A stretch of DNA of 50,311 bases from an uncultured Desulfovibrionaceae bacterium (GCA_944325325.1 CALUZP010000068.1:1-50311); one strand, 5' to 3'; shown: positions 4,648 through 31,095, numbered from the stretch's first letter. Made by a program: numbers and translations. Notes: generated by a model from the letters alone, not told the origin.

Positions 4648-4667
4648 CCTGCCCCGCAGCTCCCTAC

Positions 4668-4685: not shown

Positions 4686-4840
4686 TACTTGTCCCCCAAA
4701 AGTCCGGAGCCGCGCACGCCAGAAGCCGCGCTATAGTGCACGCTGTATCCCGCTATGAAACTCCCCGGCCTGCACATGAACGGCACGGATACAGGGCGCT
4801 GCATGCCACTTTGCCAGCCGCCTTGCGCCGTTGCAGACGC

Positions 4841-4969: not shown

Positions 4970-5111
4970 GCTCCTGCCGCGCAACCCTGTGGTATCCCCT
5001 TTTTCCGGAGGACGCTCCCAACGCCGTTCTGATCCGCAAAGACTCGGCACCGGACAACGAAATACAGCCAGGAAGGCGGGAAAACAGGGTGTCTTCAGAC
5101 ACTTTCTGCTG

Positions 5112-5161
5112 AAAAAAAGACAGGGGAGAGAAGCCCGTTCTGCGTTAAGGCTCCTCTCCCC
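5112..5161 (-). terminator. Rho-independent terminator downstream of the NCS2 permease
   Basis: A 13-base-pair stem with one mismatch (5123-5135 with 5149-5161) is followed on the minus strand by CTGTC and a run of seven T. It points away from the NCS2 permease gene, about 270 bases past its stop codon. Confidence 0.7.
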
Positions 5162-5428
5162 CCAAAAATGATGCTGACGCTAGGAAACCCCGCGTCACCG
5201 TCAGACATCCCGTTGCAGGATGCCTGCAGAGCGGCGTTGATACTCATCCCGCCCTACGGCGGCCCCTCTGCCTTTTAACGGCCCTGGCACGCTCATGCTG
5301 CACCAGTAAGCTCAACTCTGGGGTCTGCCGGCTCCTTCATCCGGCATTCAGGCAAAAGGGCTGTACATGGCGGCCGGAGGCAGCACGTCAGACGAGCATC
5401 AGCGCCTTGATAAAGAAAACCTTGCGCT

Positions 5429-6742
5429 CTAGCGCATTGCAAAGTTGATGGCAAAACAGGCAGCCACGACCCACATGACCGGGCTGACTTCCCGGACGCG
5501 GCCTGTCACGGTCTTCAGCAGCACATAGCTGATGAAGCCCATGCCGAAGCCGGTAGCGATGCTGTACGTCAGGGGCATGGTAATGATGGTCAAAAAGGCC
5601 GGCAGGGCATCGGACATGTCATCAAAGCTGATATTGCGGATATCCTGAACCATCAGTGCACCCACCACAATCAGGGCCGGCGCCGTGGCATAACTCTGAA
5701 TGACCCCGACGAGCGGCGCAAACACCAGACTCACAAGCAGCAGGATCCCCACGGTGACAGCCGTCAGGCCCGTGCGGCCGCCTTCTGCAACCCCGGCTGA
5801 GCTTTCCACATAACTGGTCACCGCCGGCGTGCCCATAAGACCGGACAGGATGGTGCCGCACGAATCGGCGATGAGCGCCTTGTCAAGGCCTTCAATCCGC
5901 CCTTCAGGAGTCATGAGTCCCGCCTTGCGCGAAAGGCCGATGATGGTGCCCATCGAGTCAAACAGGTCAACCATGGTCATGGTGAACAGAACGGAAATCA
6001 GGCCGTATTCGATAGCGGCCATGACATCCAGCTGCAAAAAGGTCGGCATAAAGCTGGGCACGTCCAGACTCATGATGCCGCCCATGCCCTGGGGAACAGG
6101 TCCGGCGCCCACGATCATGCCCAGCACTGTCGTCGCCAGGATGCCGAGCAGGATAGCCCCCCGAATCCGCAGCGACATGAGCGCCCCTGTGACCAGCAGG
6201 CCAAACAGGGACAGCAGCGTGGGCGTCTGGCCAAGATGGCCAAGAGCCACGAAGGTGACAGGATCATCCACAACAATGCCCGCGCCCTTGAGCCCGATAA
6301 AGGCGATGAACATGCCTATGCCCACCGAAATGGCCAGCTTCAGATTCATCGGCACCGAGCAGATGATGAGTTCACGCAGCCTGGTAATCGAAAGAACAAG
6401 AAAAACAATCCCTGAAACAAACACGGCTCCCAGCGCGGTCTGCCAGGGCAGTCCCATGCCGAGCACCACGGTATAGGCAAAAAACGCGTTGATCCCCATG
6501 CCCGGTGCCAGTGCAATGGGCATGTTGGCCCACAGGCCCATGAACAGCGTGGTGATGGCGGCCGCCCAGATGGTCGCAGCAAACGCCGCGTCCTTGGGCA
6601 TGCCGGCGTCAGCCAGCATGGCAGGATTGACAAAGATGATGTAGGCCATGGTGATGAAGGTCGTCACACCGGCGATCAGCTCCGTTCTGACTGTGCTGCC
6701 ATAGTCATCAAGCCGAAAATAACGTCTCAACAGGTCTGTCAT
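5429..6742 (-). CDS. NCS2 (AzgA/PbuG-type) purine permease
   Basis: The 437-residue protein has about 13 hydrophobic segments and matches the AzgA/PbuG/GhxP branch of the nucleobase:cation symporter 2 family. It has an early GVTTFITMAYIIFVNPAML segment, LAPGMGINAFFAYTVV, the VDLFDSMGTIIGL motif and a later TSYVESSAGVAEGGRTGLTA stretch. Members import hypoxanthine, guanine or adenine with protons, and this length is typical. GGAGAGAGGTG lies just ahead of the ATG. The gene is monocistronic: the spacer upstream is almost 1 kb and a terminator lies downstream. I looked for a purine riboswitch upstream and did not recognise one. Which purine it prefers cannot be told here. Confidence 0.9.
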   Translation of the reverse strand: MTDLLRRYFRLDDYGSTVRTELIAGVTTFITMAYIIFVNPAMLADAGMPKDAAFAATIWAAAITTLFMGLWANMPIALAPGMGINAFFAYTVVLGMGLPWQTALGAVFVSGIVFLVLSITRLRELIICSVPMNLKLAISVGIGMFIAFIGLKGAGIVVDDPVTFVALGHLGQTPTLLSLFGLLVTGALMSLRIRGAILLGILATTVLGMIVGAGPVPQGMGGIMSLDVPSFMPTFLQLDVMAAIEYGLISVLFTMTMVDLFDSMGTIIGLSRKAGLMTPEGRIEGLDKALIADSCGTILSGLMGTPAVTSYVESSAGVAEGGRTGLTAVTVGILLLVSLVFAPLVGVIQSYATAPALIVVGALMVQDIRNISFDDMSDALPAFLTIITMPLTYSIATGFGMGFISYVLLKTVTGRVREVSPVMWVVAACFAINFAMR

Positions 6743-7729
6743 GTCACCTCTCTCCTGACAATGTCATGCCTTAAACAGTTTTCACGCTGAAATGACCTCG
6801 ATTTCAACGCTTCCATCCAGAGGAAAAACTTCCTCTCAGCTCCATGCCGCGCTGCAGCGGCTGCCTCATCGCACACAAGGCCCTCTGGCGCGCTGCGCAG
6901 CTGCACGGCCAGCGCACCCGCCTTTGCTTCTCCCCCGAGGCCAAAGACGACGTTCCTGAATCCAGGACAGAGGGTATCCCTGCTGAACTGCCTCCTTGCA
7001 TCCATTTCAGGCTGCCCGGAACAGCCAGAGGGTCCGTCCGGCAAGCGACGGTATGCGTGCGGCAAGCCGTACTGAAGGTTTTTTATGCCCTCCCCGTGTG
7101 TCTATAAGAAAAAGCCATAACAAACCAGCGCCCTGATGGCATGCCTCCCAGGCCGGCTATTCACTAAAAAGAAGGACTTTTCCCGGAGAATCGCATACAG
7201 TAAAGCTAGTTAGCCTGCTTCAGCGAACGTTCGAACCACGCTCAGCACCTGTGCAATATTGCCCGAAAAAGATGCACCCTGCTGCAAAATCCCGGTGACA
7301 GAGGCCGCGTACGCCCCGGCAGGCTCAGCACCAGGCAACGGAATGGTGCAGTCCCTGGCCCGTCCGCACAAAAAAAGGTGTTGGACTTTCGGCCATGTCT
7401 TGCCATCTTGCCAGCAGTGTCCCCGCTGTGCGTCACAAGGCCGGAACAGCCAGGGTAGGCTGCCAGGCGGCACCATCCAGCGGCCTGCGTACATTTACCG
7501 AAAGCCACTGCAGTCTCTTGCTGTCCGCATATCCATCCGGAAAGACCAGCGGCATGCCATGCGCACACATTTTTTAAAAAAAGATGTTGACACCATGTAA
7601 AGCGAACTTATCTATATGGCGTCAAGGTTGAGGGTGTTGAACCCAAGACAAGGACAGCAAAAAAAATCATGTACGTATCATCCGTCATCCGAATAGATGA
7701 TGGGAAAAGATATGGTGGAGGTTGTTACT
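6743..7729. other. Spacer of ~990 bases between divergent NCS2 permease and hsp20
   Basis: No gene is convincing on either strand. The final 150 bases hold the hsp20 promoter and a leader of about 110 bases. An A/T-rich run, TTTTTTAAAAAAA, at about 7570-7582 lies just upstream of that promoter. The NCS2 promoter must also lie here but was not recognised. Confidence 0.5.
7587..7616 (+). promoter_or_regulatory. Sigma-70-like promoter for hsp20
   Basis: A consensus -35 box TTGACA (7587-7592) is followed after 16-18 bases by TATCTATA (7609-7616). Transcription would give a leader of about 105 bases. No sigma-32 site or CIRCE repeat was seen. An 8-base-pair imperfect hairpin (7682-7689 with 7696-7703) sits just before the ribosome binding site. 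Confidence 0.5.
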
Positions 7730-8179
7730 ATGTTGCCTGCTCTGTTCAATGAAAAGCTGTTTAACGATATGTTCTTTAGCGATCCTTTCAGCTTTGCTCC
7801 TGCATTCGGACATCATAATCCGGTGTTCGGCAAGCATGCCAAGAACATGATGAAGACTGACGTGCGGGAACTGGACAACGCCTATGAGCTTGATATTGAC
7901 CTGCCCGGCTTCAGCAAGGATGAAGTCAAAATCGAGCTTGACAACGGTTGCCTGACTATCAGCGCCGCCAAGAATGTCGATAAGGACGAAGAAGACAAGA
8001 AGGGGCAGTACATCCGCCGCGAACGTTGCACCGGCGAATGCAGCCGCAGTTTCTATATCGGCGAAAACGTCACCCCGAAGGACGTAACCGCCAAGTTTGA
8101 AAACGGCATTCTGCAGCTGACCTTCCCGAAGGCTCAGCCGGAAAAGGCTCCTGAAAGCAAAATGATTTCCATCGCCTAA
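7730..8179 (+). CDS. Hsp20 / alpha-crystallin family small heat-shock protein
   Basis: This cytoplasmic chaperone of 149 residues holds unfolding proteins soluble until ATP-dependent chaperones refold them. The alpha-crystallin domain spans about residues 42-135: it starts at KTDVRELDNAYELDIDLPGF, continues through the LTISA strand and ends at FENGILQLTFPK. The C-terminal tail carries the I-x-I motif (ISI) used for oligomer assembly. The N-terminal MLPALFNEKLFNDMF segment is typical for anaerobe Hsp20 proteins. The ATG at 7730 is preferred over one 33 bases upstream because GGTGGAGG ends eight bases before it. The gene is monocistronic, with a clear promoter and a perfect terminator. A hairpin next to the ribosome binding site could act as a thermosensor, which is speculative. 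Confidence 0.93.
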   Translation: MLPALFNEKLFNDMFFSDPFSFAPAFGHHNPVFGKHAKNMMKTDVRELDNAYELDIDLPGFSKDEVKIELDNGCLTISAAKNVDKDEEDKKGQYIRRERCTGECSRSFYIGENVTPKDVTAKFENGILQLTFPKAQPEKAPESKMISIA

Positions 8180-8235
8180 CAGGCAATGCAGCGGCGGCTG
8201 ACAAGGCTGCCGCTGCAGGTATCCCGATACCTGTG

Positions 8236-8273
8236 AAAGCTCCCTGGCAACCATGGTTGCCAGGGAGCTTTTT
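8236..8273 (+). terminator. Perfect-palindrome terminator of hsp20
   Basis: A perfect inverted repeat of 18 bases per arm (8236-8271) ends in a T run. It lies 57 bases after the hsp20 stop codon. Confidence 0.9.
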
Positions 8274-8453
8274 GTATTGCCTGCTTCCGTAAAACAGGCC
8301 TCAGCCTGCGGCATGAGGCAGGCGGCACCCTTTTTTCCACCTGTTTCGGAGCAACAGCCTTCCTCCCGGCTGCTGCGGAACAGGCCGGCAGGCTCTGAGC
8401 CGCCCGCGCGTACAGGCCATGCGCCGCTTTGGACAACACGCTGTGCTCAGGCC

Positions 8454-8487
8454 AAAAAACAAGGGGAGCCCTTTCCGACTCCCCTTG
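8454..8487 (-). terminator. Terminator of the paaK-ACT operon
   Basis: CAAGGGGAG (8460-8468) pairs with CTCCCCTTG (8479-8487) across a 10-base loop. On the minus strand the stem is followed by six T, about 125 bases beyond the ACT-protein stop codon. Confidence 0.85.
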
Positions 8488-8612
8488 TCCAGATCTGTGC
8501 ACCATGTTTGCGCCAGGCTCCGAGGGGGGGCCGCACGGGATCTGCCTCCCGTCAGGCTCCATGCCCTTCCTGCTGCACGCCCGGCCTGTGGGCAGCAGGC
8601 GAATTTCCAACG

Positions 8613-9047
8613 TTAGTCGTCCAGGCGCAGCTCTTCCTGGCTGACCGGCGTATAGCCGTTTTTGACAAGCACGTCGACGGCCTTTTCGTTGTCTTCAACC
8701 CGCAGCACCACATAGGCCTTGTCTTTCTGACGCGCCGTGAAGGCATAAATATAGCAGATGTTGATGCCGTTTCTGCCCAGCGCGTCGACCACTTCCGACA
8801 GGCCGCCTGGCGTATCTTTCAGGGGCACGGCAAGAACCGGCGTGATCTTGAACACATACCCCGCGTTCTTGAGCACGGTGGACGTCGCGTAACTGTCGTC
8901 CACGATGATACGCAGAATGCCAAAGTTTTCCACCTCAGCGATGGACAGAGCGCGGATGTCTATGTTGTGCTCACGCAACAGGTGGGTGAATTCAGACAGT
9001 TTGCCCGGTTCATTTTCCAAAAATACGGAAATCTGATTGACGCTCAT
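8613..9047 (-). CDS. Tandem ACT-domain protein partnered with PaaK
   Basis: The 144 residues consist almost entirely of two ACT domains. The first (about 4-65) opens with QISVFLENEPGKLSEFTHLL and the second (about 70-138) with PLKDTPGGLSEVVDALG. ACT domains bind amino acids or similar small ligands. Stand-alone double-ACT proteins are commonly encoded next to phenylacetate-CoA ligase in anaerobes and may sense aromatic amino acids or the ligase substrate; that role is inferred from context. The gene starts 14 bases after the paaK stop, with its GGGAG site immediately after that stop, so the two are translated from one message. A terminator follows. No catalytic domain is present. Confidence 0.85.
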   Translation of the reverse strand: MSVNQISVFLENEPGKLSEFTHLLREHNIDIRALSIAEVENFGILRIIVDDSYATSTVLKNAGYVFKITPVLAVPLKDTPGGLSEVVDALGRNGINICYIYAFTARQKDKAYVVLRVEDNEKAVDVLVKNGYTPVSQEELRLDD

Positions 9048-9061
9048 GTCTTCAGCTCCCT

Positions 9062-10363
9062 TTAGTACAATTTACGATTGTCGATGATGCGGACAGCCTT
9101 TCCTTCACTGCGTACGATTGTCTTGGGGGCAACAAGCTTCACCGTGGCGTAGATGCCCAGCATGGACTTCAGCGCATCCACGAGTTCCTTTTCCTTGGCT
9201 GTGACCTGACTCATCGAGTCAGAGAACATTTCGCTGGTCATTTCAACCTGGATGTCGAGCGTGTCGCTGTTCTTCACCCGGTTTACGATAATCTGGTAAT
9301 TTGCCGGATACCCCTTGTTGATGAGCACCGTTTCAATCTGGGACGGGAACACGTTGACGCCCTTGACGATAAGCATGTCATCGCTGCGGCCCATGGGCTT
9401 GGACATCTTCACATGCGTGCGTCCGCACGAGCACGGCTTGCGGCTCAGTACGCAGATGTCACGCGTGCGGTAGCGCAAAAGCGGAAACGCTTCCTTGGTG
9501 ATGCTGGTAAAGACGAGCTCGCCCTTTTCGCCTTCCGGAAGCACTTCGCCCGTTTCGGGATCGATAATTTCGGCGATGAAATTGTCCTCGTTGATGTGCA
9601 TGCCCGTCTGTTCGCTGCACTCAAACGAAACGCCGGGGCCGGAAATTTCCGTCAGCCCGTAGATGTCATACGCCTTGATGCCGAGCTTCTGCTCGATGTC
9701 ATGGCGCATTTCCTCACTCCACGCTTCCGCGCCGAAAATCCCTGCCTTAAGCTTGATCTTGTCGCGCAGGCCCCGCTCGATGATGCTTTCGGCAAGATAA
9801 AGGGCATATGAAGGCGTGCAGCACAAAATGGTCGACTGCAGGTCGACCATGAACTGAATCTGACGATCCGTATTGCCCGAAGACATCGGCAGGGTCAGCG
9901 AACCCAGCTTGTGCGATCCCCCGTTCAGGCCGGGACCGCCAGTGAACAGGCCATAACCGTAGCAGACATGAACCACATCGTCCCTGGTGCCGCCTGCCGC
10001 CACGATGGCGCGTGCGCAGCATTCATCCCACAGGTCGAGGTCATGCTGCGTATAAAAGGCAACCACACGCCGGCCTGTCGTGCCGCTGGTGGACTGGATG
10101 CGGACGCAATCCCTGAGGGGGCAGGCCAGAAGGCCGTACGGATAGGCGTCACGCAGATCGGCCTTTGTCAAAAAGGGAAGCTTGTGCAGGTCGTCAACAG
10201 ATTTGATGTCTTCAGGAGTCAGGCCTTTTTTCTGCATCCGTTCCCTGTAGTAGGCAACATTGTCGTAAACGTGCCTTACGGTTTTGCACAGGCGTTCATC
10301 CTGCCACTTGCGAATCTGCTCCTGAGACGCGCATTCAATTTCCGGCTGGAAATAGTTTTCCAT
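9062..10363 (-). CDS. paaK: Phenylacetate-CoA ligase (PaaK family)
   Basis: This 433-residue adenylate-forming enzyme activates phenylacetate or a related aryl-acetate to its CoA thioester using ATP. It carries the P-loop-like motif STSGTTGRRVVAF near residue 87, the DIYGLTEISGPG motif near residue 235, and a C-terminal lid region beginning near RTRDICVLSRKPCSCGRTH with GRSDDMLIVKGVNVFPSQIE. Length and motifs are typical for bacterial and archaeal PaaK. The ATG at 10363 is chosen because GGAGGAAGG lies just upstream; an alternative start 39 bases earlier lacks a site. It forms an operon with the double-ACT protein. In anaerobic sulfate reducers such enzymes probably serve aromatic amino-acid breakdown products or their assimilation. 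The exact acid is not evident. Confidence 0.92.
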   Translation of the reverse strand: MENYFQPEIECASQEQIRKWQDERLCKTVRHVYDNVAYYRERMQKKGLTPEDIKSVDDLHKLPFLTKADLRDAYPYGLLACPLRDCVRIQSTSGTTGRRVVAFYTQHDLDLWDECCARAIVAAGGTRDDVVHVCYGYGLFTGGPGLNGGSHKLGSLTLPMSSGNTDRQIQFMVDLQSTILCCTPSYALYLAESIIERGLRDKIKLKAGIFGAEAWSEEMRHDIEQKLGIKAYDIYGLTEISGPGVSFECSEQTGMHINEDNFIAEIIDPETGEVLPEGEKGELVFTSITKEAFPLLRYRTRDICVLSRKPCSCGRTHVKMSKPMGRSDDMLIVKGVNVFPSQIETVLINKGYPANYQIIVNRVKNSDTLDIQVEMTSEMFSDSMSQVTAKEKELVDALKSMLGIYATVKLVAPKTIVRSEGKAVRIIDNRKLY

Positions 10364-11315
10364 GACTGAGCCTTCCTCCTTCAGATTGGCCGATCTGTAC
10401 ACAACTATACAGCGTGTCGCAATATTGTATCAATATGAGAGCTAAACTGATCAAGCATACTCTAAGAGGCAGCGATTCGCAAATCCATGATGGATGGCGC
10501 AGCATTACCACTAAGCGCTTTTTATGAATTTATAGTCTGACTTGATATAGTATAGACAAAAAATACAGACTAAGTATTTTGAAAATAAAACCAATGCAGA
10601 GCTAATTTGAACCGATGAAATTGCCATGCAGAATAAAAAATAAAAAATTATAAGGACGTTTCTGAAAAAAATTCTTTTTTTGCACAAGGGGCTATTCACA
10701 GGCGTCACAAAAAGGCATCGCCATGCACAGGGTATCCAGAACGCTTATCTTGACACATCTATTTTTTGCAATAATGCAATATGTTATGGTAAAAATCCCG
10801 TAAAAATTTTTGTCTTCCTATAAGAAAATACGCATTCCGGGGAACTTCTGTCCGGAAAAACGCCGCCTCCCATACCGCCAGCGCGGGCGTGCCACGCGCC
10901 TTCATCATGTTGGTCCGGCAGCGTGCATGGCTCCTGCGTCTTCCTCATCTGCAAGAATCAGGCAACTTTTTGCATCAATTGTGTCTTCATCCCGGGAGCC
11001 ATCCAGTCTACGTTACAACACAGCCTCTGTGCGGCAGGCTGCCGGTACGGCATCCGGACTGCCCTGCAAGACGTCCCGCCCATTCCCTCCGGCGCGGGAG
11101 CTGTTGCGAACTGGGAAAGCAGTCTGCGCCGGTCCGTTGCGCCCAGAGCACAGGGAGGCCATGTGCACAGAGAGATCGCCAGCTCCTTGCCGGCAGGACG
11201 GCCAGACGGTTTCCGTGGTGCGCCTGGCAACAGCACGCCAGGCAGCCGGCTTTATCGGGCAGCCCGGCCTGCCCTGGCAAACAGACTCCTGCCATACACT
11301 GAGAGCATACTATCC
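10364..11315. other. Spacer of ~950 bases between divergent paaK and MBL-fold gene
   Basis: The 10440-10830 half is AT-rich and holds a good promoter with an overlapping palindrome (10750-10779). The 10830-11315 half is GC-rich. A 65-codon minus-strand open frame at 10511-10708 is low-complexity, rich in Ile, Phe and Ser, and is not accepted. The stretch is far longer than divergent promoters need, so it may hide decayed sequence. Confidence 0.5.
10750..10779 (+). promoter_or_regulatory. Promoter-like TTGACA element overlapped by a TTGCA-N4-TGCAA palindrome
   Basis: TTGACA at 10750-10755 is followed after 16 bases by TAATGC (10772-10777). The perfect palindrome TTGCA-ATAA-TGCAA (10766-10779) covers the -10 region, as a repressor operator would. 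The nearest plus-strand gene starts over 500 bases downstream, so the promoter may serve an unrecognised transcript or be a relic. Confidence 0.35.
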
Positions 11316-17447: not shown

Positions 17448-17972
17448 CTATTCCTTAACGGACTGACCGGAGCCGCTCCCGGTGCCATTGTACTGTTCGT
17501 CAGTCACCTTCTCCATCCATTCGACGACCTTGCCAGGCTCCTGTTCTTCACAAATGGAAATGTGCGACATGGAACAGTTTGGCGCTGCGCCGTGCCAGTG
17601 CTTGACGCCCACAGGGCAGATCACGACGTCACCCGGCCTGACTTCCTGAACGGGCCTGCCCCATTCCTGCGTCCTCACCACGCCGGAGGTGATGATCAGC
17701 ACCTGCCCTACAGGGTGAATATGCCAGTTGGAGCGGGCGCCCGGCTCAAACGTCACCACTCCCCCGCTGGAACGCATGGCGTTGTTGGCGGGATACAAAG
17801 GATCAATGCGCACATTGCCGGTAAAAAACGCCTCTGCACCCTTCAGCGAAGCCTGCTCACCGTTGCGGACAATCGTCTGAGACCTGCCTGTTTCTGCAGC
17901 AAAGCCATGGGTAGCGGAAAGGCCGGTTGTGACGGCCAGAGCCAGTGCCATGCCGATCATCGCGTTTTTCAT
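17448..17972 (-). CDS. Exported single-domain cupin protein
   Basis: The 174-residue protein has a cleavable signal peptide (MKNAMIGMALALAVTTGLSA, cleavage probably after GFA) and one cupin domain (about residues 60-150). The two cupin motifs are SNWHIHPVGQVLIITSG, with two histidines and Gln in place of the usual Glu, and GDVVICPVGVKHWHGA with further histidines, so a metal site is likely. Similar cupins, some with hydroxynitrile lyase-like folds, are often encoded near aldo/keto reductases and AraC_N regulators; the true reaction is usually unknown. CCTCC complement at 17980-17984 gives GGAGG seven bases before the ATG. The gene lies about 100 bases upstream of the alcohol dehydrogenase on the same strand, so they may share a message. 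The periplasmic location separates it from the cytoplasmic oxidoreductases. Confidence 0.83.
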   Translation of the reverse strand: MKNAMIGMALALAVTTGLSATHGFAAETGRSQTIVRNGEQASLKGAEAFFTGNVRIDPLYPANNAMRSSGGVVTFEPGARSNWHIHPVGQVLIITSGVVRTQEWGRPVQEVRPGDVVICPVGVKHWHGAAPNCSMSHISICEEQEPGKVVEWMEKVTDEQYNGTGSGSGQSVKE

Positions 17973-18854
17973 GCTCAAACCTCCTTGTTACACTGCAAGA
18001 TATGAGCGCATGATAGGCGACCCGGCCTGGATTGAACCAGCTACGATTCTTGCATCTTCTTGCCTGTTTCTACAGGCCTTCCCTGTACAAGGCCGCACGG
18101 CAGACCGGCAGTATGCGCCAGACAGGCCACGACCCCAAAACCGCGCAACAGGTGCAGCACGGCATGGCATGCTGCCGGAAGTCCTGCCTTTCGACCTGTC
18201 ACTAAGGACGCGTGGGGCATGGGAGAAAACGACTGCGGTCTCAAGGTGGCTGTGCCTCTTTCGGCAACAGCGCACGCCGCACACGAGGGGAGACTCAGCC
18301 CGCCGATGCGTACAGGCTGGATGCACAAGGACGTCATACCGTGTGCGTGGGAAGAATCGCGGAGCGGACTGTCTGACGGTACCGGGGACGGCGAGCATGG
18401 TGCCGCGCGGGGGATGCTTAGAAAAGCACGGCGCGGCCGCGGCGGCACGACGGGCATCATGGACGGGCATGAATCCTTTTGCGAGGGTATCCCCGTCATA
18501 GTTTGTTTTCATGCTTGCCGACATGAAAGCGAAAGGAAGGTAGCCCGTCTGTTACCGGGGAGTGGAACGAACCTGTGCGCGGCTGAAAGGATTTCGCAGT
18601 CCATCCACCCGTTCTTGCTGCTATCTCAGGAAGTGTAGATCTGCTTTATCGTACTCCGGCTTGTATTTTTTTTAAGAAAACTTGCTTGAGCAAATTACAT
18701 GTCGGATATCCTTTTATCACATTATTTACATTGTAATGCTTTTAGCATAGTCTATATCATTTCGTTTGGTCAGCCATGAATGAGTCGCACCTGAAGACGT
18801 TGCCTGATATAGTGCTACATTAAAAAACGTTTGTGACACCAGGGAGGAAAAAAG
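17973..18854. other. Spacer of ~880 bases between divergent cupin and lipoprotein genes
   Basis: The first 650 bases are GC-rich with no supported gene. A tRNA-like T-arm (TTCAATCC with partial stems) near 18015-18045 on the minus strand does not extend into a tRNA. The last 200 bases are AT-rich and hold the promoter of the lipoprotein gene. Confidence 0.5.
18725..18753 (+). promoter_or_regulatory. Candidate promoter for the lipoprotein gene
   Basis: TTTACA (18725-18730), 17 bases, then TAGTCT (18748-18753) lie about 100 bases upstream of the lipoprotein start, within an AT-rich stretch. Confidence 0.4.
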
Positions 18855-19994: not shown

Positions 19995-20324
19995 CTAGCG
20001 GGCCGGCTTTCTGTTCTCGAACCGGTATGTTGTTTCCTTGCCGTTGATGTCACGGCATTTCCAGGTAATGGAACTCTTGCCCATGATAGGCCGCAGACTG
20101 GCCTTAAAGTAGCCGAGCTGGTACGGCATTTTGGTTTCCAGCGCATTGCGCGGGCAAGCCTTGATACAGGACATGCAGTCCCAGCAGTCCCGCGCTGAAC
20201 GCACAAACGCCTTGCCGGTGCTTGTGTCAAGCGCCATGAGATCGCCAGGGCAGATTTCTTCGCAGAACGTTTCCGCGCGGCCCTGGCAGCCGTTGCATTT
20301 GTGCGGGTCGACAATAGGGGGCAT
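19995..20324 (-). CDS. AprB-like two-cluster ferredoxin subunit (short form)
   Basis: The 109-residue iron-sulfur protein resembles the beta subunit of adenylylsulfate reductase. Eight cysteines form two [4Fe-4S] sites: C10, C13, C21, C25 in CNGCQGRAETFCEEICP and C47, C50, C53, C57 in CWDCMSCIKACP. Trp48, beside the second site, occupies the place of the tryptophan that passes electrons to the flavin in known AprB. True AprB has about 150 residues; here the C-terminal tail that wraps around AprA is missing, so the complex must be smaller. The gene starts 14 bases after the aprA-like stop and is the last gene of the minus-strand cluster. It probably delivers electrons to or from the flavoprotein. 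Which redox partner it meets is unknown. Confidence 0.85.
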   Translation of the reverse strand: MPPIVDPHKCNGCQGRAETFCEEICPGDLMALDTSTGKAFVRSARDCWDCMSCIKACPRNALETKMPYQLGYFKASLRPIMGKSSITWKCRDINGKETTYRFENRKPAR

Positions 20325-20338
20325 GATGACACTCCTCG

Positions 20339-22111
20339 CTATGCGTGTTGCCGGTCTCCCGGAATCAGCTGTTCATAAGGCCGTGTGAAGGTCGTGACGA
20401 CACCGCTTTGCGGATCACGACGCGACTCCACAAAGCAGTCGAAGTGTTCGTCATCGCGTTCAGGATAGTCGACGCGCGTCTGCCAGCCGGCCCAGCGGGT
20501 TTCCTTGCGGGCCTTCAGGTGATGCACCACGGCTTCCGCCACATCCACACGATCCATGGTTTCGTGGGCTTCCATCAGTTCATGCAGCGAATCCGCCGTC
20601 AGGAACACAAACTGGCTCTGCAGCATCTTGATATGACGCAGGGCATAGTCCAGGCGTTCTTCATTGGTGCGGTAATACTGGCTGATGCCACCGGCGTATT
20701 CATCCATGAGCCGTTGCAGGCGCTCCTTCATTTCCACCGGACGCACGCCTTCCTGTCCGCACCGCAACAGCGGCGCATAGACGCGCGCCTTTTCGGCCTC
20801 CACCTGTGCTGCATCCAGTGCAGGCAGTTCCAGTCCGTTCATCCAGGCCAGCGCGCCTCTCGCAGCCAGCTTGCCTTCGGCTGCGCAGCCGCCCACGAAC
20901 TTGTTGGGATTGCCGCCAGCGGTCTCCCCGGCGGCAAACAGTCCGGGGAGGGTCGTCATGCGCTCCATGTCCACCCAGAAGCCGCTGCCTGTATGCCCGC
21001 CCACGATGTACGGATCGGAACCATAAATCTCGATGGGCTCCCTGGTGACGTCCTGACCGCGGCTGGCCAGGAACAGCACGAAGGAGGGCCGTTCGTTAAG
21101 ATAGTCCACAAGCATGTCGTGGGCCTTTTCCGGGCTGAGGCCTGTCGTGTCGCAATAGCAGGGGCCACGCCCGGCCAGCCATTCTTCCATGGGGGCGTTG
21201 GCCCGGATGAACCGGGGCGCCGCGTCGCCTCCCCATTCCTTGTAGCGCTCCATCACCCGCTCGCCTTTGGCGTTGATGATGGCAGACTTGTAACCTACGG
21301 AAATGGTGTCGATGGGCCCGCAGAAATCCTTGGAGCGCGTAGCCACCCAGCGCTGTTCCAGGCTGGTCAGCTCCGCCCCCTGACGGAAGCCCATGGCATA
21401 GCCGGAGCCCACACAGTACGGACACATCCAGATCTGCGCGCCGCTGTCTGTGGAGTCAGCGGTATATGACTTGTAGAGCGTGCCTGCGCCGCCGGTGCTG
21501 ACAACGGTGGCTCTGGCGCGGAACACATAAAACCTGCCGTCGCGCACGCCAAACCCCATGGCGCCCACGCAGCGGCCTTCCTGTACAAGGAGGCCTGTGG
21601 CCACCACACGGTTGTAGACATCTGCGCCGCTTTCCAGCGCCTTTTCGGCCATGATGGGCTTGAGCTGCTCGCCATGGATGGAAATGTCCCATTTGCCGCG
21701 ATAGGAGGCGTTGCCTTCCTCATCGCGCACAATGGGCAGGCCCCAGCGTTCCAGGTCCTCGACGCACTCGTTGAGTTCCCGGGCGTTGGAAAGGGCAAGA
21801 TCTTCCCGCAGAGGGCCGCCGCCCACCTGTGCGCGGCTCCAGCGCACCAGATCCTCGGGCGTTCTGCCTTTGGGGATATAGGTGTTGATGGCGTCCATGC
21901 CTGCCGAACAGGCTCCGGAACGGCGGATATCCGCCTTTTCCACAATGACGGTGCGGATGCCGGGCTGTTTTTTGGCGGCTTCCACAGCCACAAAGCAGCC
22001 GGCATTGCCCCCGCCGATGATCAGCAGATCGGCACAGACTTCCACTGTTTCAACCGAATCAAGCCCTGTGGGATGAAAATCCACGGCGTGGGCCGTATTC
22101 ATGCGTGCCAT
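20339..22111 (-). CDS. AprA-like FAD-dependent reductase/oxidase subunit
   Basis: The 590-residue flavoprotein belongs to the fumarate reductase/AprA superfamily. FAD-binding elements are LLIIGGGNAGCFVAVEAAKK (29-48), STGGAG (205-210) and GLFAAGETAGGNPNKFVGG (390-408). Segments match adenylylsulfate reductase closely: RRSGACSAGMDAINTY (about 63-78), WDISIHGEQLKPIMAEKA, QRWVATRSKDFCGP (about 253-266) and GGHTGSGFWV (about 371-380). The Asn, Arg and His known to contact APS or sulfite in AprA therefore seem to have counterparts. It is shorter than genuine AprA (about 660 residues). The gene is in an operon with a tripartite tricarboxylate transporter instead of sat or qmo, so an imported organic acid is the more likely substrate than APS; this is inference. 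AAAGGAG precedes the ATG. Confidence 0.85.
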   Translation of the reverse strand: MARMNTAHAVDFHPTGLDSVETVEVCADLLIIGGGNAGCFVAVEAAKKQPGIRTVIVEKADIRRSGACSAGMDAINTYIPKGRTPEDLVRWSRAQVGGGPLREDLALSNARELNECVEDLERWGLPIVRDEEGNASYRGKWDISIHGEQLKPIMAEKALESGADVYNRVVATGLLVQEGRCVGAMGFGVRDGRFYVFRARATVVSTGGAGTLYKSYTADSTDSGAQIWMCPYCVGSGYAMGFRQGAELTSLEQRWVATRSKDFCGPIDTISVGYKSAIINAKGERVMERYKEWGGDAAPRFIRANAPMEEWLAGRGPCYCDTTGLSPEKAHDMLVDYLNERPSFVLFLASRGQDVTREPIEIYGSDPYIVGGHTGSGFWVDMERMTTLPGLFAAGETAGGNPNKFVGGCAAEGKLAARGALAWMNGLELPALDAAQVEAEKARVYAPLLRCGQEGVRPVEMKERLQRLMDEYAGGISQYYRTNEERLDYALRHIKMLQSQFVFLTADSLHELMEAHETMDRVDVAEAVVHHLKARKETRWAGWQTRVDYPERDDEHFDCFVESRRDPQSGVVTTFTRPYEQLIPGDRQHA

Positions 22112-22137
22112 GCCATTTTCTCCTTTAAAACAACGCG

Positions 22138-23625
22138 TTATCCCTTGCGGGCGGCAAGCATGGACTTGCCGATGACGAGGAACGTCAGGACCATGAGGAT
22201 GTCCGCCACAGGCTGCTTGAAGAACATGTACGGATCCTGCTCGGAGGCGATGATGACCTGCTGCAGTGAGGTTTCCCAGATGGGCGCGAGGATGAAGCCG
22301 ATAATCAGGCAGATGAAGGAGTAATCAAACTTCCGCATGAAATACGCCAGCAGGGAAAAGACAATCATCAACGTCACGTCAAAGGTGGAATACTGCGAGA
22401 GGTAGGATCCCATGACACAGGTGAAGATGATGATGGGATACAAAATCAGCGGGGGGATCCGCACGACCTTGCAGAACAGCTTGAGACCCAGGCGGCCCAC
22501 ACCCAGCAGAAAGAGGTTGGCAATGATGAGGCTGCCATAGATGGCGTAGATGAACTGGGCGTTCTGTTCGAACATGAGCGGGCCGGGCGTCATGCCGTGC
22601 AGCACAAACGCGCCGATAAGCAGCGCGGCCGCCATGTTGCCGGGAATACCCAGCGTAAACAGCGGAATGAGGCTGGACGCCACCACGGCGCTGTTGGCGG
22701 ATTCCGAAGCGGCGATGCCTTCCAGCCGGCCGGTGCCGAACTCTTCAGGATGCTTGGAGTGCTTGACAGCCTGGTCATAGGCAAAGAAGGAGGCCACCGG
22801 CGCGCCAAGACCCGGCAGGGCACCCACCACAGTCCCTGCGATGGACGAACGCAGCAGCGTCCCTGCGCAGCGGAGATATTCCTTTAACGACACCAGACGA
22901 TCTTCAGGTCTGGAAGAGAAGGAAAGCACCTCCGCCTGCCCCTTGTCGTCAATAAGGCGCTCCAGCTGAATGATGATTTCGGAAAAGGCCAGCATGCCTA
23001 TGCCGACGGGAATCAGGGAAATCCCGCGCTCCAGCGAAACGATGTTGAAGGTCAGCCGGGGCATGGCCGAGACAGGCTCAATGCCGATAGTGCCCACAAG
23101 CACACCCATGGCAGCGGCGATAAGCCCCCGGATCAGGGATTTGGTGCCCAGGCCTGCGATGATGATCATGGCCATGCAGATGAGCGCAAACACTTCCGGC
23201 GGTCCCATATACAGGGCTACGGCAGCCAGCGGCGCAGCCACAAGGATGAGCACCAGCGTGGCAAAGGCGTCACCCGTGACGGACGCATACAGGGCCATCC
23301 GCAGCGCCTTTTCCCCCTTGCCCTGCAAGGCCAGCGGGTGCCCGTCCCAGGTGGTGGCGGCAGATTCCGGCGTGCCAGGCGTATTGAGCAGGATGCCCGA
23401 AATGGAGCCGCCGAAGAAAGCCCCCTTGTTGAGGCCCACGAGAAACCCGATGGCGGCCACGGGGGACATATAGTACGACAGGGGAATGCACAGGGCGATG
23501 GCCATGGGGCCGTTGATGCCGGGAATGGCTCCGGCAATAACCCCGGCAATGACGCCAAGCAGCACAAACAGCAGGTTGGCAACCTGCAACGCCTCTGCGA
23601 ATCCCGCACAAATCATGTCAAACAT
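22138..23625 (-). CDS. tctA: Tripartite tricarboxylate transporter large membrane subunit, TctA
   Basis: The 495-residue protein has about 12 membrane segments and the TctA family motifs: GVIAGAIPGINGPMAIAL (about 22-40), FFGGSISGILLNTPGTPESAATTWDG (about 72-97) and a second glycine-rich motif GALPGLGAPVASFFAYD. It is the channel-forming subunit that works with TctB and the periplasmic binder TctC to import a carboxylic acid using the ion gradient. The start at 23625 has GGAGGAGAG upstream. It sits 26 bases before the aprA-like gene and 22 bases after tctB, in one minus-strand operon. Substrates of this family include citrate, tartrate, terephthalate and other organic acids; the one used here is unknown. 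Confidence 0.92.
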   Translation of the reverse strand: MFDMICAGFAEALQVANLLFVLLGVIAGVIAGAIPGINGPMAIALCIPLSYYMSPVAAIGFLVGLNKGAFFGGSISGILLNTPGTPESAATTWDGHPLALQGKGEKALRMALYASVTGDAFATLVLILVAAPLAAVALYMGPPEVFALICMAMIIIAGLGTKSLIRGLIAAAMGVLVGTIGIEPVSAMPRLTFNIVSLERGISLIPVGIGMLAFSEIIIQLERLIDDKGQAEVLSFSSRPEDRLVSLKEYLRCAGTLLRSSIAGTVVGALPGLGAPVASFFAYDQAVKHSKHPEEFGTGRLEGIAASESANSAVVASSLIPLFTLGIPGNMAAALLIGAFVLHGMTPGPLMFEQNAQFIYAIYGSLIIANLFLLGVGRLGLKLFCKVVRIPPLILYPIIIFTCVMGSYLSQYSTFDVTLMIVFSLLAYFMRKFDYSFICLIIGFILAPIWETSLQQVIIASEQDPYMFFKQPVADILMVLTFLVIGKSMLAARKG

Positions 23626-23647
23626 GATGACTCTCTCCTCCGGCGGC

Positions 23648-24091
23648 TTACGGCATGGGGACGCCAAGGCCGAAACGCATCAGCGCATACACAACAACAA
23701 CCGGCACGACAGATACAATGGCCATTGTCAGCCAGCGCCTCTGGCCACAGACGAACTGAATCCAGGCCATGAACACGATGCCCGCCGGGATGAACCCGGC
23801 AAGGGACATGGCCGGCATGAGCAGGACACAGGGGATCAGAAACACGGCAAGATGCTTCCAGTGGATGCGCCCCACGCTCCCGGTGGAAGCCGCCTTGTGC
23901 AGCAGTGTCCGGATAAGTCCCAGAATGGACAGCGCCAGCATGAATCCTGCGGCAATATTGGGCAGCAGTGTGGCCGGGACGCCATACCCAGGGTATTCCG
24001 GCGACCAGGTGGGGATGATCCAGAGCAGCAGGGCGCTGCTGAACACAGCCACCGTGCCGTAGGAAATGGTATCTCGTTGCGCTTGGGTCAT
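23648..24091 (-). CDS. tctB: Tripartite tricarboxylate transporter small membrane subunit, TctB
   Basis: The 147-residue protein has four predicted membrane helices, the standard TctB layout: a short cytoplasmic start, an LLLWIIPTW helix, an intermediate loop with PNIAAGFMLALSILGLI, then two closing helices. GGAG lies seven bases before the ATG at 24091. It lies between tctC and tctA. TctB supports assembly or function of the membrane complex and has no known catalytic residues. Length and position agree with the family, although sequence conservation is always low. Confidence 0.88.
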   Translation of the reverse strand: MTQAQRDTISYGTVAVFSSALLLWIIPTWSPEYPGYGVPATLLPNIAAGFMLALSILGLIRTLLHKAASTGSVGRIHWKHLAVFLIPCVLLMPAMSLAGFIPAGIVFMAWIQFVCGQRRWLTMAIVSVVPVVVVYALMRFGLGVPMP

Positions 24092-24148
24092 TGCTACACT
24101 CCATGGCGGCGGGACATGGCACAAGCCCCGCCGGACAAAATGACAAGA

Positions 24149-24178
24149 CAGGCGTCCACTCCTCAGAGCAGACGCCTG
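24149..24178 (-). terminator. Intra-operon hairpin between tctC and tctB
   Basis: CAGGCGTC (24149-24156) pairs with GACGCCTG (24171-24178) across 14 bases, directly after the tctC stop. There is no T tract, so it probably stabilises tctC mRNA or partly terminates, giving more binding protein than membrane subunits. Confidence 0.5.
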
Positions 24179-24191
24179 CCCGGACGGGAAG

Positions 24192-25130
24192 TTATTTGGA
24201 CACGAGCTTGGCGAACCGTTCTGAGGCTTCGTGCATATACTTCTGCGCTTCTTCCGAACCCATGGTCACAGGCTGCATATGCAGTTTTTCCGTCATGAAC
24301 TCAGCAAACGTCTTGTCGTTGCGCACGGTCTCGACCACATCCAGAAGACGCTGGCGCACGTCATCGGGCAGCCCCTTGGGCGCGGCAAGCACAAGATACA
24401 TTTCCACGCTTTCATCCCAGCCCTGTTCGCGCAGGGTAGGCACATCCGGCAGTTCCTTCAGACGCACGGGAATGGTTGCCGCAATGCACTTGATCTTCTT
24501 GCCGGTCACATAGTCGAACAGAATGGCCCCGGTATGCCCAAGATCCGCATGGCCGCCCATGACGGCAGTAATGATGGAAGGACCGCCCGTGCTGGGCATA
24601 AGCGAAAGCTTCACGCCTTCCTTGGCGGCAATGCGTTTGAGCGCGTCGCGATCGTCCGACCCCTGGAACATGTACGTCAGGCCCTTGCCTTCTTTCCTGG
24701 CCCATTCAAAGGCGTCCTTGAGGGTGTTCCAGGGCCGGTCAGGCGCGCAGATGATGCCGCTCTGGTTCAGGCCCAGCAGCGTGATGTAGTCAAAATCATC
24801 CAGCTTGTAGGTCGTACGCACGACGTGCGGCGAATAGGTGAATGCGGCTGTTGCCGAAACGCCAAGGGTGTAGCCGTCCTTGGGAGAGGAAGCCAGCTCG
24901 GAAGCCATGACGCTGCCATGAGAGCCGCCGGGCTTGTTGCTGACAAGCACAGGCTGCCCCAGAATGTTCTTCATGCGGTCAGCCAGCGCCCGCGTCAGCA
25001 GGTCAATCTGCGCGCCGGGGTTGGTCATTGTGAGGACTGTCACAGGATGATCAGGATACGTTCCGGCCCCGGCCGATGCCGGGCTCAAAAACAGCAATGC
25101 GGCCATGGCCAGCAAGAGAAATTTACGCAT
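24192..25130 (-). CDS. tctC: Tripartite tricarboxylate transporter periplasmic binding protein, TctC
   Basis: The 312-residue protein opens with a signal peptide (MRKFLLLAMAALLFLSPASA, cut near AGA). The mature Bug/TctC-type binding protein shows YPDHPVTVLTMTNPGAQIDLLTR, VSNKPGGSHGSVMASELASS, DGYTLGVSATA and DVPTLREQGWDESVEMYLVLAAPKGLP. These loops normally grip carboxylate groups of the ligand. The expected PGG and DG turns are present. The ATG at 25130 has GGAGG seven bases upstream. It is first in the operon tctC-tctB-tctA-aprA-like-aprB-like and lies opposite a divergent Crp/Fnr-type gene. The ligand is unknown; it is probably the substrate, or its precursor, of the aprA-like enzyme. Confidence 0.92.
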   Translation of the reverse strand: MRKFLLLAMAALLFLSPASAGAGTYPDHPVTVLTMTNPGAQIDLLTRALADRMKNILGQPVLVSNKPGGSHGSVMASELASSPKDGYTLGVSATAAFTYSPHVVRTTYKLDDFDYITLLGLNQSGIICAPDRPWNTLKDAFEWARKEGKGLTYMFQGSDDRDALKRIAAKEGVKLSLMPSTGGPSIITAVMGGHADLGHTGAILFDYVTGKKIKCIAATIPVRLKELPDVPTLREQGWDESVEMYLVLAAPKGLPDDVRQRLLDVVETVRNDKTFAEFMTEKLHMQPVTMGSEEAQKYMHEASERFAKLVSK

Positions 25131-25433
25131 GGTTTGCCTCCAGCCATGAAAGAGTACGGTGATGGTTGCCGGCAGAAACTCTGCCAGAACCGTTACTTTT
25201 GCCATCATTGTGGGCTCAATCTATGAACCAGAAAAAATAAAATCTATCAGCTGCATGATAATCGTGAAAATTTTCGCTATTTTTTGATGATGGCGTAATC
25301 ATGCCCCTGTAACGCGGGGCAGCCTCTCGACGGCCCCGCAACAATCTGGCATGCTGCATCATGGCGGAAGCGCCTGCCCTGCCGGCAACGCCTGCATTCT
25401 CCGTTCAACGGCACGCACGAACATGGGAAATAT
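25131..25433. promoter_or_regulatory. Divergent regulatory region between tctC operon and crp/fnr-type gene
   Basis: This 303-base region must hold promoters for both directions. Its middle is AT-rich. An imperfect 22-base palindrome, AAT-N3-GAAAATTTTC-N3-ATT, lies at 25260-25281 and is the best operator candidate. A GC-rich pair of alternative stems (GCGGGGC with GCCCCGC) lies at about 25313-25340 in the leader of the regulator gene. Confidence 0.45.
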
Positions 25434-26123
25434 ATGAACGATTTCTGGCATCTGGAAACAGAGGATTTTTTTGAAGGCCTGCAGGAAGAAAAGGCCGCCT
25501 TTCTTGAGCTGGCGTCCCGCCATGTTCTAAAAAAGCAGGAAACCATTTTTCTTGAGGGAGAAGCAGGCATAACCTGCTGCTACATTGAGTCCGGTCTGGT
25601 GCGCTTGTTCAGTGCGGCTCAGGCTGGCAAGGAAACGACGTTGTTCCTCCGGCGTCAGGGTGAAATTTTCGGACTTGCCGAACTGATGAACAACACGTCC
25701 AGGATGCTGTCTGCCCAGGCGCTGACCACCTCTGTCATCTACATTATTGAACGCAGCCAGTTTGAGCGGCTCCTGAAGGAACATTTTTCCCTGGTGCGCC
25801 GCGTCATCAGCACCCTTGGCAAGCGGCTGCGCTACATGGGCAAACGCTTCAGCAGCCAGAACGGCGACGTCCGGCACAGGCTCGCATTTCTGCTGGTGAC
25901 CCTGGCTTATGACGCCCTGCATAAAAGCCCGGACTGGGAGAAGCCGTGCAGCCTGCCCTATCCCATTTCACAGCATCAGCTGGCCGACATGGTCGGCTCA
26001 ACCCAGCCAACGGTCAGCACCAACCTGCAGGAATTCAAAAACGAAGGGCTGATCTCCATGGCAGGGCACAGAATCACCCTGACCTGCCCGGTACAGTTCA
26101 TCTATCTGCTGAATGAGCGATAG
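25434..26123 (+). CDS. Crp/Fnr-family transcriptional regulator
   Basis: The 229-residue protein has an N-terminal cyclic-nucleotide-type beta-roll (about 15-125: ETIFLEGEAGITCCYIESGLV, KETTLFLRRQGEIFGLAEL), a dimer helix, and a C-terminal winged helix-turn-helix (about 170-215: ISQHQLADMVGSTQPTVSTNLQEFKNEGLI). The Fnr-type N-terminal cysteine cluster is absent. The Cys pair at about residue 47 is not arranged as a known cluster. It therefore probably senses a small ligand or a haem-bound gas, as CprK, CooA and HcpR do. Its gene is divergent from the TctCBA-AprAB-like operon, so control of that operon by the transported acid is the natural guess. The ribosome binding site is weak (GGGAA). No gene follows for 1.4 kb. 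Confidence 0.88.
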   Translation: MNDFWHLETEDFFEGLQEEKAAFLELASRHVLKKQETIFLEGEAGITCCYIESGLVRLFSAAQAGKETTLFLRRQGEIFGLAELMNNTSRMLSAQALTTSVIYIIERSQFERLLKEHFSLVRRVISTLGKRLRYMGKRFSSQNGDVRHRLAFLLVTLAYDALHKSPDWEKPCSLPYPISQHQLADMVGSTQPTVSTNLQEFKNEGLISMAGHRITLTCPVQFIYLLNER

Positions 26124-30246: not shown

Positions 30247-31095
30247 CTATGGATGGTTATTGAACTTGTCAGCCATGGACGCGGAGCCGCTGTGGCAGGG
30301 AGTGCAGTCCATGTTGCCCTTCTGGATGTCGGCCATCTCACCCTTGCCGTGGCAGGTGACACAGCCAGCCACGGATTCCTGCTTGCCAAGAGCGCCCTTC
30401 CAGTCCTTGCCGGCGTCGATCTTGGCATTCAGGATTTCAATGGCCTTGCGGCTCACGTCAGCAGTAATGCGACCGCAGCGCTCGCTGCGTGCAGTGCTGT
30501 TGGCTTCAAGCTTCGTCGTATAGGACCAGCGGGAAACGGACACATGGCAGAGAACAGAGTGAGACACGCTGGTGGGAAGCTCACCCTTCACCCCCTGCGC
30601 GGCGTCACCGGGGTTGTAAATGGGGAACGCCGTCTTTTCGTACCAGCGGAACAGTTCATTGACCATGGGCGTGGCTTCCTTGCGCGGATAGAACACCGAA
30701 AAAGCCATGGCCGCCCCGGCCAGGGCGCCGCACACAGTGCCCCAGTCGGACATACCGCCCTTGAAGCCTTCCATCATGGTGAAGGGGAAACAGTTATAGG
30801 GAGCGCCGTACTTTTCCGCCATCGTGCCGATGATGCTGTAGAACACACCGTAACCACAGCCATATCCCTTATACCAGTAGCCCTGGTACGCTACAGCACT
30901 GGCAGCTGCGATGTCATCAATCTTCTTCGGCGTCCAGCCAAATTCTCCGCCCATCTGCCCAAAGTGTCCATCCTTGCCGGCAGACATGGCCGGAGCGGCA
31001 GGCGCTGCAATGACATTGCCAGACAGGGAGGCCAGAGAACCACCAACGACCAGACCCCCCATGGCGCCCAGCATAGCTCTTCTGCTGTAATCCAT
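30247..31095 (-). CDS. Split-Soret cytochrome c (dihaem, C_GCAxxG_C_C family)
   Basis: The 282-residue precursor has a twin-arginine signal (SRRAMLGAMGGLVVGGSLAS) for export to the periplasm. The mature part starts with a redox-domain of the C_GCAxxG_C_C type (GYGCGYGVFYSIIG near 77-90, a Cys in APYNCFPF, and WGTVCGALAGAAMAFSVF). It ends with two c-type haem sites, CVTCH and CTPCH (about 243-267). A Tat signal, this domain and two C-terminal haem sites describe the split-Soret cytochrome c of Desulfovibrio, a homodimer with stacked haems thought to act in periplasmic electron transfer, possibly linked to nitrate or other stress metabolism. AGGAGAGGAG precedes the ATG. It is a single gene, with an AT-rich upstream region carrying an inverted repeat. 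Confidence 0.88.
   Translation of the reverse strand: MDYSRRAMLGAMGGLVVGGSLASLSGNVIAAPAAPAMSAGKDGHFGQMGGEFGWTPKKIDDIAAASAVAYQGYWYKGYGCGYGVFYSIIGTMAEKYGAPYNCFPFTMMEGFKGGMSDWGTVCGALAGAAMAFSVFYPRKEATPMVNELFRWYEKTAFPIYNPGDAAQGVKGELPTSVSHSVLCHVSVSRWSYTTKLEANSTARSERCGRITADVSRKAIEILNAKIDAGKDWKGALGKQESVAGCVTCHGKGEMADIQKGNMDCTPCHSGSASMADKFNNHP

What the first reader, a model, noticed from the sequence alone, without database searches (positions are those of the whole stretch)
19995..26123. AprAB-like reductase in an operon with a TctCBA transporter and a divergent Crp/Fnr regulator
Seen: a 590-residue flavoprotein with AprA-type motifs (Asn in AINTY, Arg in the QRW...KDFCGP stretch, His in GGHTGSGFW) and a 109-residue AprB-type protein with eight Cys and Trp48 beside the second cluster, directly behind a tripartite tricarboxylate transporter. 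Known: canonical aprAB sits with sat and qmo and reduces APS; TTT systems import organic acids. Inference: this pair uses the APS reductase electron path on an imported organic acid, such as an unsaturated or sulfonated carboxylate, as a dedicated respiratory or assimilatory module. The shortened AprB tail marks it as a separate lineage.
Basis: partly seen in the sequence, partly recalled or inferred. Interest (0 to 1): 0.75.

Follow-up and report, generated by a model that had tools for sequence, protein, structure and literature searches.

The report
Import-coupled cousin of APS reductase
Sulfite-respiring bacteria, gut species among them, share an uncharacterised enzyme pair that keeps the sulfur-handling core of sulfate-respiration's APS reductase but has a rebuilt pocket and its own importer and switch, which suggests that it releases sulfite from an imported sulfur compound nobody has identified.

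Summary
Window 19995-26123 holds AprB-like, AprA-like, TctA, TctB and TctC genes in one tight operon with a divergent Crp-type regulator. The AprA-like protein ("AprA*" here) is not canonical AprA: it misses the aprA cut-off (386 vs 642 bits) and its clade has full support outside canonical AprA. I found 77 such loci, in Desulfobacterota, Bacillota, Nitrospirota and Chloroflexota. Catalytic residues of APS reductase are kept, but 22 positions are fixed differently from every other AprA, several beside the substrate site. Next to the pair lies one of three unrelated anion transporters (DASS 53, TTT 13, TauE/SafE 6); Hdr subunits follow in 32. A palindrome, TATCA-N6-TGATA, precedes both TTT and DASS operons. 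This MAG, a complete relative, a Bilophila MAG and Moorella stamsii lack Sat but have DsrA, so the pair cannot serve sulfate reduction there; 59 of 64 AprA* genomes carry DsrA. Best reading: the imported anion carries a sulfo group, which AprA*B* cleaves to sulfite for DsrAB. The substrate is not shown; organic-acid reduction or APS scavenging remain possible. Probably the same genes were called 'AprAB' in Taurinivorans and Bilophila papers.

The parts
19995..20324 (-). aprB-like gene: two [4Fe-4S] ferredoxin subunit, 109 aa, 8 Cys, Trp48
   Evidence: TIGR02060 90.9 bits, cut-off 135.65; 1jnr_B 82 bits, 8a8o_C 64 bits; Cys and CWDCM motif conserved in 76 AprB*
20339..22111 (-). aprA-like (AprA*) gene: FAD subunit, 590 aa
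   Evidence: (8a8o_A 473 bits, 1jnr_A 343)
22138..23625 (-). tctA, large membrane subunit of a tripartite tricarboxylate transporter
   Evidence: PF01970 467 bits
23648..24091 (-). tctB, small membrane subunit
   Evidence: PF07331 44 bits
24192..25130 (-). tctC, periplasmic binding protein with signal peptide (start placed by comparison with L005; first in-frame ATG at 25208)
   Evidence: PF03401 123 bits; nearest solved TctC/Bug proteins
25243..25260 (-). conserved palindrome TATCATGCAGCTGATAGA (TATCA-N6-TGATA), proposed operator of the Crp-type regulator
   Evidence: a site in front of the operon in 8 of 9 genomes searched
25434..26123 (+). divergent Crp/Fnr-family regulator, 229 aa
   Evidence: PF00027 and PF13545; a Crp-type gene is near the AprA*B* pair in 68 of 77 loci

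Best explanation
A self-contained, substrate-controlled respiratory module. TctCBA (or, in relatives, a DASS or a TauE/SafE-type carrier) imports an organic anion that bears a sulfo group, for example an organosulfonate or an S-sulfo (Bunte-salt) acid. AprA*B* works like APS reductase: electrons enter through the two AprB* clusters and Trp48 to FAD, whose N5 attacks the sulfo group held by N76/W228/R259/H373. The rest of the molecule leaves and the flavin-sulfite adduct releases sulfite, which DsrABC respires. The Crp-type protein switches on this one operon at the TATCA-N6-TGATA site. Shown by computation: gene content, distinct clade, kept catalytic residues, changed substrate-site residues, importer swap beside a constant enzyme and regulator, absence of Sat in several carriers, and link with DsrA. 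Inferred: substrate class, direction, electron donor, and that the regulator binds the palindrome.
For: 77 AprA* keep N76, W228, R259, K261, D262, R303, H373, K404, F405, as in APS reductases. 22 positions are fixed otherwise than in all canonical, assimilatory and PAPS-reducing enzymes compared, including D73, D142 (Q145 in A. fulgidus), D219, D268 (Gly in all others), R300, N305, N403, G407. The clade has SH-aLRT 100. Three unrelated anion importers occupy the slot beside the pair: DASS 53, TTT 13, TauE/SafE 6 of 77. Assimilatory relatives instead sit with Sat and a sulfite-reductase-like gene (L083) or with sulfate-type ABC transporter and cysDN-like genes (L137, L140), so AprA* loci carry no substrate-activating enzyme. 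Sat is absent from G000, G012, complete G039, G150 (Bilophila), G160 and G161 (Moorella stamsii), yet DsrA is there. DsrA in 59 of 64 AprA* genomes; phylum sample 12/12 against 90/185, Fisher p = 2.7e-4. The same palindrome stands before TTT and some DASS operons.
Against: No substrate has been tested. C-S sulfonates are poor leaving groups for an N5-attack mechanism, so an S-sulfo or otherwise activated sulfo compound would be needed. AprA* has an Arg (R300) at the alignment position of the fumarate-reductase catalytic Arg. TTT and DASS carriers mostly move plain di- and tricarboxylates (own knowledge). The DsrA link is not independent of phylogeny. In Taurinivorans muris, AprAB was transcribed but not seen in the proteome on taurine, sulfolactate or thiosulfate (PMC10507020), so those three are unlikely substrates if that pair is AprA*B*.
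Confidence: 0.45

Rival explanations
1. AprA*B* reduces (or oxidises) a sulfur-free imported acid, such as an unsaturated di- or tricarboxylate, by hydride transfer, as fumarate reductases do.
For: R300, invariant in AprA* and Thr/Ala in other AprA, aligns with the catalytic Arg of succinate dehydrogenase/fumarate reductase. TTT and DASS carriers often move such acids. The same MAG has a second flavoprotein (PRK08275-type) in a TctCBA operon. Hdr partners suit a high-potential acceptor.
Against: Other fumarate-reductase substrate residues (the His of HPT, the Thr/Ser-Glu pair, the His before MGG, the Arg of NRLG) are not conserved, while the APS reductase sulfonyl set is. TauE/SafE carriers replace TTT or DASS in six loci. 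DsrA is present in 59 of 64 genomes.
Confidence: 0.25
2. It is a true APS (or PAPS) reductase that uses APS made elsewhere, as proposed for Bilophila wadsworthia, which is reported to grow on APS and has AprAB-like genes without Sat.
For: NF005331 'adenylyl-sulfate reductase subunit alpha' cut-off is passed (574.5 vs 557 bits); F405 and R303 are kept; PMC11610557.
Against: Positions shared by APS- and PAPS-using branches (G274, W373, M365 in A. fulgidus numbering) are replaced in AprA*; K120/R121/S122 of the PAPS reductase are K140/W141/D142. A TTT, DASS or TSUP carrier for a nucleotide is implausible. Where Sat was found among AprA* genomes tested, canonical AprA is usually present too. PMC11610557 did not test the enzyme.
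Confidence: 0.12
3. It is a cytoplasmic thiosulfate reductase: N5 attack on the sulfonate sulfur releases sulfide and leaves sulfite.
For: Chemically the closest analogue of APS cleavage; T. muris respires thiosulfate without a known thiosulfate reductase and has this operon if G039 is that species (PMC10507020).
Against: AprAB was not detected in thiosulfate-grown T. muris proteomes; TTT carriers for an inorganic anion are not known to me; the thiosulfate couple is too low for Hdr-type bifurcation (own knowledge).
Confidence: 0.08
4. It runs in the oxidative direction (sulfite detoxification or formation of a sulfo compound that is exported).
For: TauE/SafE carriers are often exporters; APS reductases are reversible (own knowledge).
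Against: TctC is an uptake binding protein; many loci have Hdr or NADH-linked modules that can feed electrons.
Confidence: 0.06

Closest known systems
PAPS reductase of Methanothermococcus thermolithotrophicus (PDB 8A8O, PMC10322725)
   Same: Best sequence and fold match (473 bits; TM 0.89/0.95, 42% identity); short AprB; same catalytic residues
   Different: Pocket residues K120/R121/S122 are K140/W141/D142; belongs to a sulfate-assimilation pathway with APS kinase, no organic-anion importer reported
Dissimilatory APS reductase AprAB (1JNR, 2FJA, 3GYX)
   Same: Fold, FAD plus two [4Fe-4S], catalytic Asn/Trp/Arg/His
   Different: 28-36% identity; far below aprA and aprB model cut-offs; separate clade; no AprB tail; not with sat/qmo; 22 clade-specific positions
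Assimilatory AprAB of the PRK06854 type (L082-L084, L137, L140)
   Same: Size, short AprB, near AprA* in sequence (about 50% identity for L082-L084)
   Different: L083 sits with Sat and L137/L140 with sulfate-type ABC importers (L140 also cysDN-like); Asn instead of D142 and Gly instead of D268 in L082-L084
'AprAB' of Taurinivorans muris (PMC10507020) and Bilophila wadsworthia (PMC11610557)
   Same: AprAB-like genes without Sat in close relatives; probably the same genes (a complete relative, G039, and Bilophila MAG G150 have this operon)
   Different: Described there only as AprAB; transporter, operator, wider clade and pocket change not reported in the text read
SlcFGH tripartite transporter for sulfolactate
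   Same: TTT carrier in a sulfonate-respiring member of Desulfovibrionaceae (PMC10507020)
   Different: Works with SlcC-ComC-SuyAB, not with a flavoprotein reductase

Membership tests
Dissimilatory APS reductase (AprAB) | Scores over curated aprA and aprB models (TIGR02061, TIGR02060) | tested here: not met
   386.2 vs 641.75 and 90.9 vs 135.65 bits
Dissimilatory APS reductase (AprAB) | Falls inside the canonical AprA clade | tested here: not met
   42 AprA* and 23 canonical each one side of a branch, SH-aLRT 100
Dissimilatory APS reductase (AprAB) | Catalytic N74, W234, R265, H398 | tested here: met
   N76, W228, R259, H373; invariant, bar one unresolved residue
Dissimilatory APS reductase (AprAB) | Long AprB C-terminal tail | tested here: not met
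   AprB* median 108 aa, canonical 139-168 aa
Dissimilatory APS reductase (AprAB) | ATP sulfurylase in the genome to make APS | tested here: not met
   No Sat in G000 (83.7% complete), G012, G039 (99%), G150, G160, G161; present in many other carriers, most of which also have canonical AprA
Dissimilatory APS reductase (AprAB) | Reduces APS | not testable with these tools
   needs enzyme assay
NCBIfam PRK06854 'adenylyl-sulfate reductase subunit alpha' | Curated cut-off | tested here: met
   574.5 vs 557 bits
M. thermolithotrophicus-type PAPS reductase | K120/R121/S122 phosphate-binding residues | tested here: not met
   K140/W141/D142; D142 invariant in 77
Fumarate reductase / succinate dehydrogenase | Catalytic Arg plus His (HPT), Thr/Ser-Glu, His and Arg dicarboxylate residues | tested here: not met
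   Only the Arg position (R300) is matched; the others are not
Tripartite tricarboxylate transporter | TctA, TctB and TctC | tested here: met
   PF01970, PF07331, PF03401 over cut-off
Crp/Fnr regulators | cNMP-binding fold plus Crp-type HTH | tested here: met
   PF00027 63.7 bits, PF13545 49.5 bits; does not reach any equivalog cut-off

The most novel reading that the evidence does not exclude
AprA*B* defines a further function of the APS reductase fold: direct reductive desulfonation (or removal of an S-sulfo group) of an imported organic sulfo compound, giving a route from an unrecognised sulfur electron acceptor to DsrAB in environmental and gut sulfidogens.
Probability: 0.4. Interest if true: 0.85.

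Novelty: new variant of a known kind. Interest (0 to 1): 0.62.

Why it matters
The pair is widespread in sulfate and sulfite reducers, among them Desulfovibrio piger, a Bilophila and a probable Taurinivorans, and such genes are annotated as APS reductase. That name may mislead: AprAB-like genes in a genome without Sat have already been taken as evidence for APS use. Recognising the pair as an import-coupled enzyme with another likely substrate points to a hidden electron acceptor and H2S source, gives one operon with a nearly unique palindrome for finding the inducer, and warns against using loose aprA hits as a marker of sulfate reduction.

Tried and rejected
PF12139 as a first probe rang in no control genome, so it was not used. 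A wider regulon was sought for a substrate clue: the operator pattern has a site in front of this operon in 8 of 9 genomes, and the extra site in G154 and the only site in G150 lie inside ORFs, so no further target genes were found. TctC and DASS comparison with solved structures gave only distant, substrate-mixed relatives. Considered and rejected: sulfate reduction by this pair in the window's genome (no Sat), use of the short AprB tail as a lineage marker, and membership in fumarate reductases. A literature search for Moorella stamsii physiology gave nothing useful. G053's AprA fragment looked like AprA* at first but is of the assimilatory type.

Full report
What is there. The order on the minus strand is tctC, tctB, tctA, aprA-like, aprB-like with short gaps, and a Crp-type gene diverges from tctC. 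In the nearest relative (L005, 96% identical AprA) the same order is kept.

It is not canonical AprAB. The flavoprotein scores 386 bits against the aprA model (cut-off 642) and the ferredoxin 91 against aprB (cut-off 136), while the broader model PRK06854 is passed. The nearest solved relative is the PAPS reductase of M. thermolithotrophicus by sequence and by fold (AlphaFold2 model, mean pLDDT 82.9; Foldseek TM 0.89/0.95). A 74-row tree puts 42 AprA* on one branch with SH-aLRT 100, apart from 23 canonical AprA, three assimilatory AprA, the PAPS reductase and a third AprA type found near canonical aprA in Peptococcaceae-like genomes. The tree is a quick one; the order of the deep branches is not settled.

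The active site. In 77 AprA* the residues that hold and attack the sulfo group in APS reductase are kept (N76, W228, R259, H373; also K261, D262, R303, K404, F405; H373 is unresolved in one sequence). Their roles are from the A. fulgidus work as I know it and from PMC10322725. At 22 positions AprA* is fixed (at least 97%) to a residue seen in none of 37 canonical and 7 other AprA sequences. By alignment several lie next to known substrate-site residues: D73, D142, D268, V272, R300, N305, N403, G407. At position 268 every other AprA compared has Gly; at 142 canonical AprA has Gln, assimilatory Asn, PAPS reductase Ser. R300 aligns with the catalytic Arg of succinate dehydrogenase, but the dicarboxylate residues of that family are not matched. 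My reading is that the sulfonyl machinery is kept and the nucleotide pocket rebuilt. I had no coordinates, so distances were not measured.

The neighbourhood. Of 77 loci, 53 have a DASS carrier, 13 TTT and 6 a TauE/SafE (TSUP) carrier near the pair, nearly always directly upstream; five are unresolved, most of them at contig ends. A Crp-type gene is near in 68. HdrA, often with HdrC and HdrB or with AsrA/AsrB-like NADH-linked subunits, follows in 32, outside Desulfovibrionaceae. In contrast, related assimilatory AprAB sit with ATP sulfurylase and a sulfite-reductase-like gene (L083) or with sulfate-type ABC transporter genes and, in L140, cysDN-like genes. Three unrelated importers in one slot, with enzyme and regulator constant, argue that what is imported is the enzyme's own substrate.

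The operator. TATCA-N6-TGATA lies about 110 bases before tctC in the window (25243-25260) and in front of the TTT operons of L005, L012, L013, L024, L047, L080 and G039 (one mismatch or none by the tools' scores), and with one or two mismatches in front of the DASS operons of D. piger (L034, L006) and L027. Matches of at least 9 of 10 are expected 0.013 times per kb by chance. The longer pattern TATCRNNNNNCYGATAGA occurs once per genome, before this operon, in seven of nine genomes; in G154 one of two hits is before the operon, and in G150 the only hit lies in an unrelated ORF. Many loci do not carry the site, those of the Clostridia among them. That the regulator binds it is inferred.

Metabolic setting. 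The window's MAG (83.7% complete) has no other AprA and no Sat but has DsrA. The same holds for its sister genome G012, a complete family member G039 that carries the TctCBA-AprA*B* operon, the Bilophila faecipullorum MAG G150 and Moorella stamsii G161. Other carriers, such as D. piger, have canonical AprA, Sat and AprA* together. DsrA is found over cut-off in 57 and in pieces in 2 of 64 AprA* genomes; the five without are MAGs, as far as named or rated, one of them 62% complete. In a sample of 197 genomes of the phylum, 12 of 12 AprA* genomes have DsrA against 90 of 185 others (Fisher p = 2.7e-4). Sister species are not independent, so the p-value is optimistic.

Literature. PMC10507020 reports AprAB without Sat and QmoAB in Taurinivorans muris, transcribed but not found in proteomes on taurine, sulfolactate or thiosulfate. 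PMC11610557 reports two AprAB-like pairs without Sat in Bilophila wadsworthia, growth on APS, and proposes APS cross-feeding; the passages read report no enzyme assay. PMC8667426 states that B. wadsworthia lacks AprAB. In the papers searched I found no description of the transporter-linked clade; the library lacks most subscription journals.

Mechanism. Most likely the imported anion carries a sulfo group and AprA*B* releases sulfite by APS-reductase chemistry for DsrABC. For: kept sulfonyl residues, sulfur-associated TauE/SafE carriers in the same slot, a TTT precedent for sulfolactate, the DsrA link and the absence of an activating enzyme. Against: no substrate is known, C-S sulfonates are hard to cleave this way (an S-sulfo acid would fit the chemistry better), and R300 leaves room for an organic-acid reductase. 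I put the main reading at 0.45, a sulfur-free organic acid at 0.25, APS/PAPS at 0.12, thiosulfate at 0.08 and oxidative use at 0.06.

Noticed in passing
L142 (G000 contig C27, 1-4457): The same MAG has a second TctC-TctB-TctA operon headed by a PRK08275-type flavoprotein (31% to AprA*), so TTT carriers pair with this flavoprotein superfamily more than once.
   Followed up: partly
L137 (G053) 3103-8201 and L140 (G083) 4525-10954: Relatives in the same genus and family carry a different AprA-like gene beside sulfate-type ABC transporter genes (and in L140 cysD/cysN-like genes): an apparent assimilatory use of an AprAB-type reductase.
   Followed up: partly
L131, L132, L133 (G165, G164, G166): A third AprA-like type (437-453 bits to aprA) lies about 7 kb from canonical aprA in Peptococcaceae-like genomes; function unknown.
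   Followed up: no
L042, L045, L046, L048, L057 upstream of AprA*: A PhnD-type periplasmic binding protein (PF12974) sits near the DASS gene (or at the contig end in L057), an unusual pairing of a binding protein with a DASS carrier.
   Followed up: no
window 17448-17978 (-): Cupin protein with a signal-peptide-like N terminus, over the cut-off of the (R)-mandelonitrile lyase model, next to alcohol dehydrogenase and aldo-keto reductase genes.
   Followed up: no
window 30247-31095 (-): C_GCAxxG_C_C redox protein with an apparent twin-arginine-like N terminus and CxxCH motifs near the C terminus.
   Followed up: no
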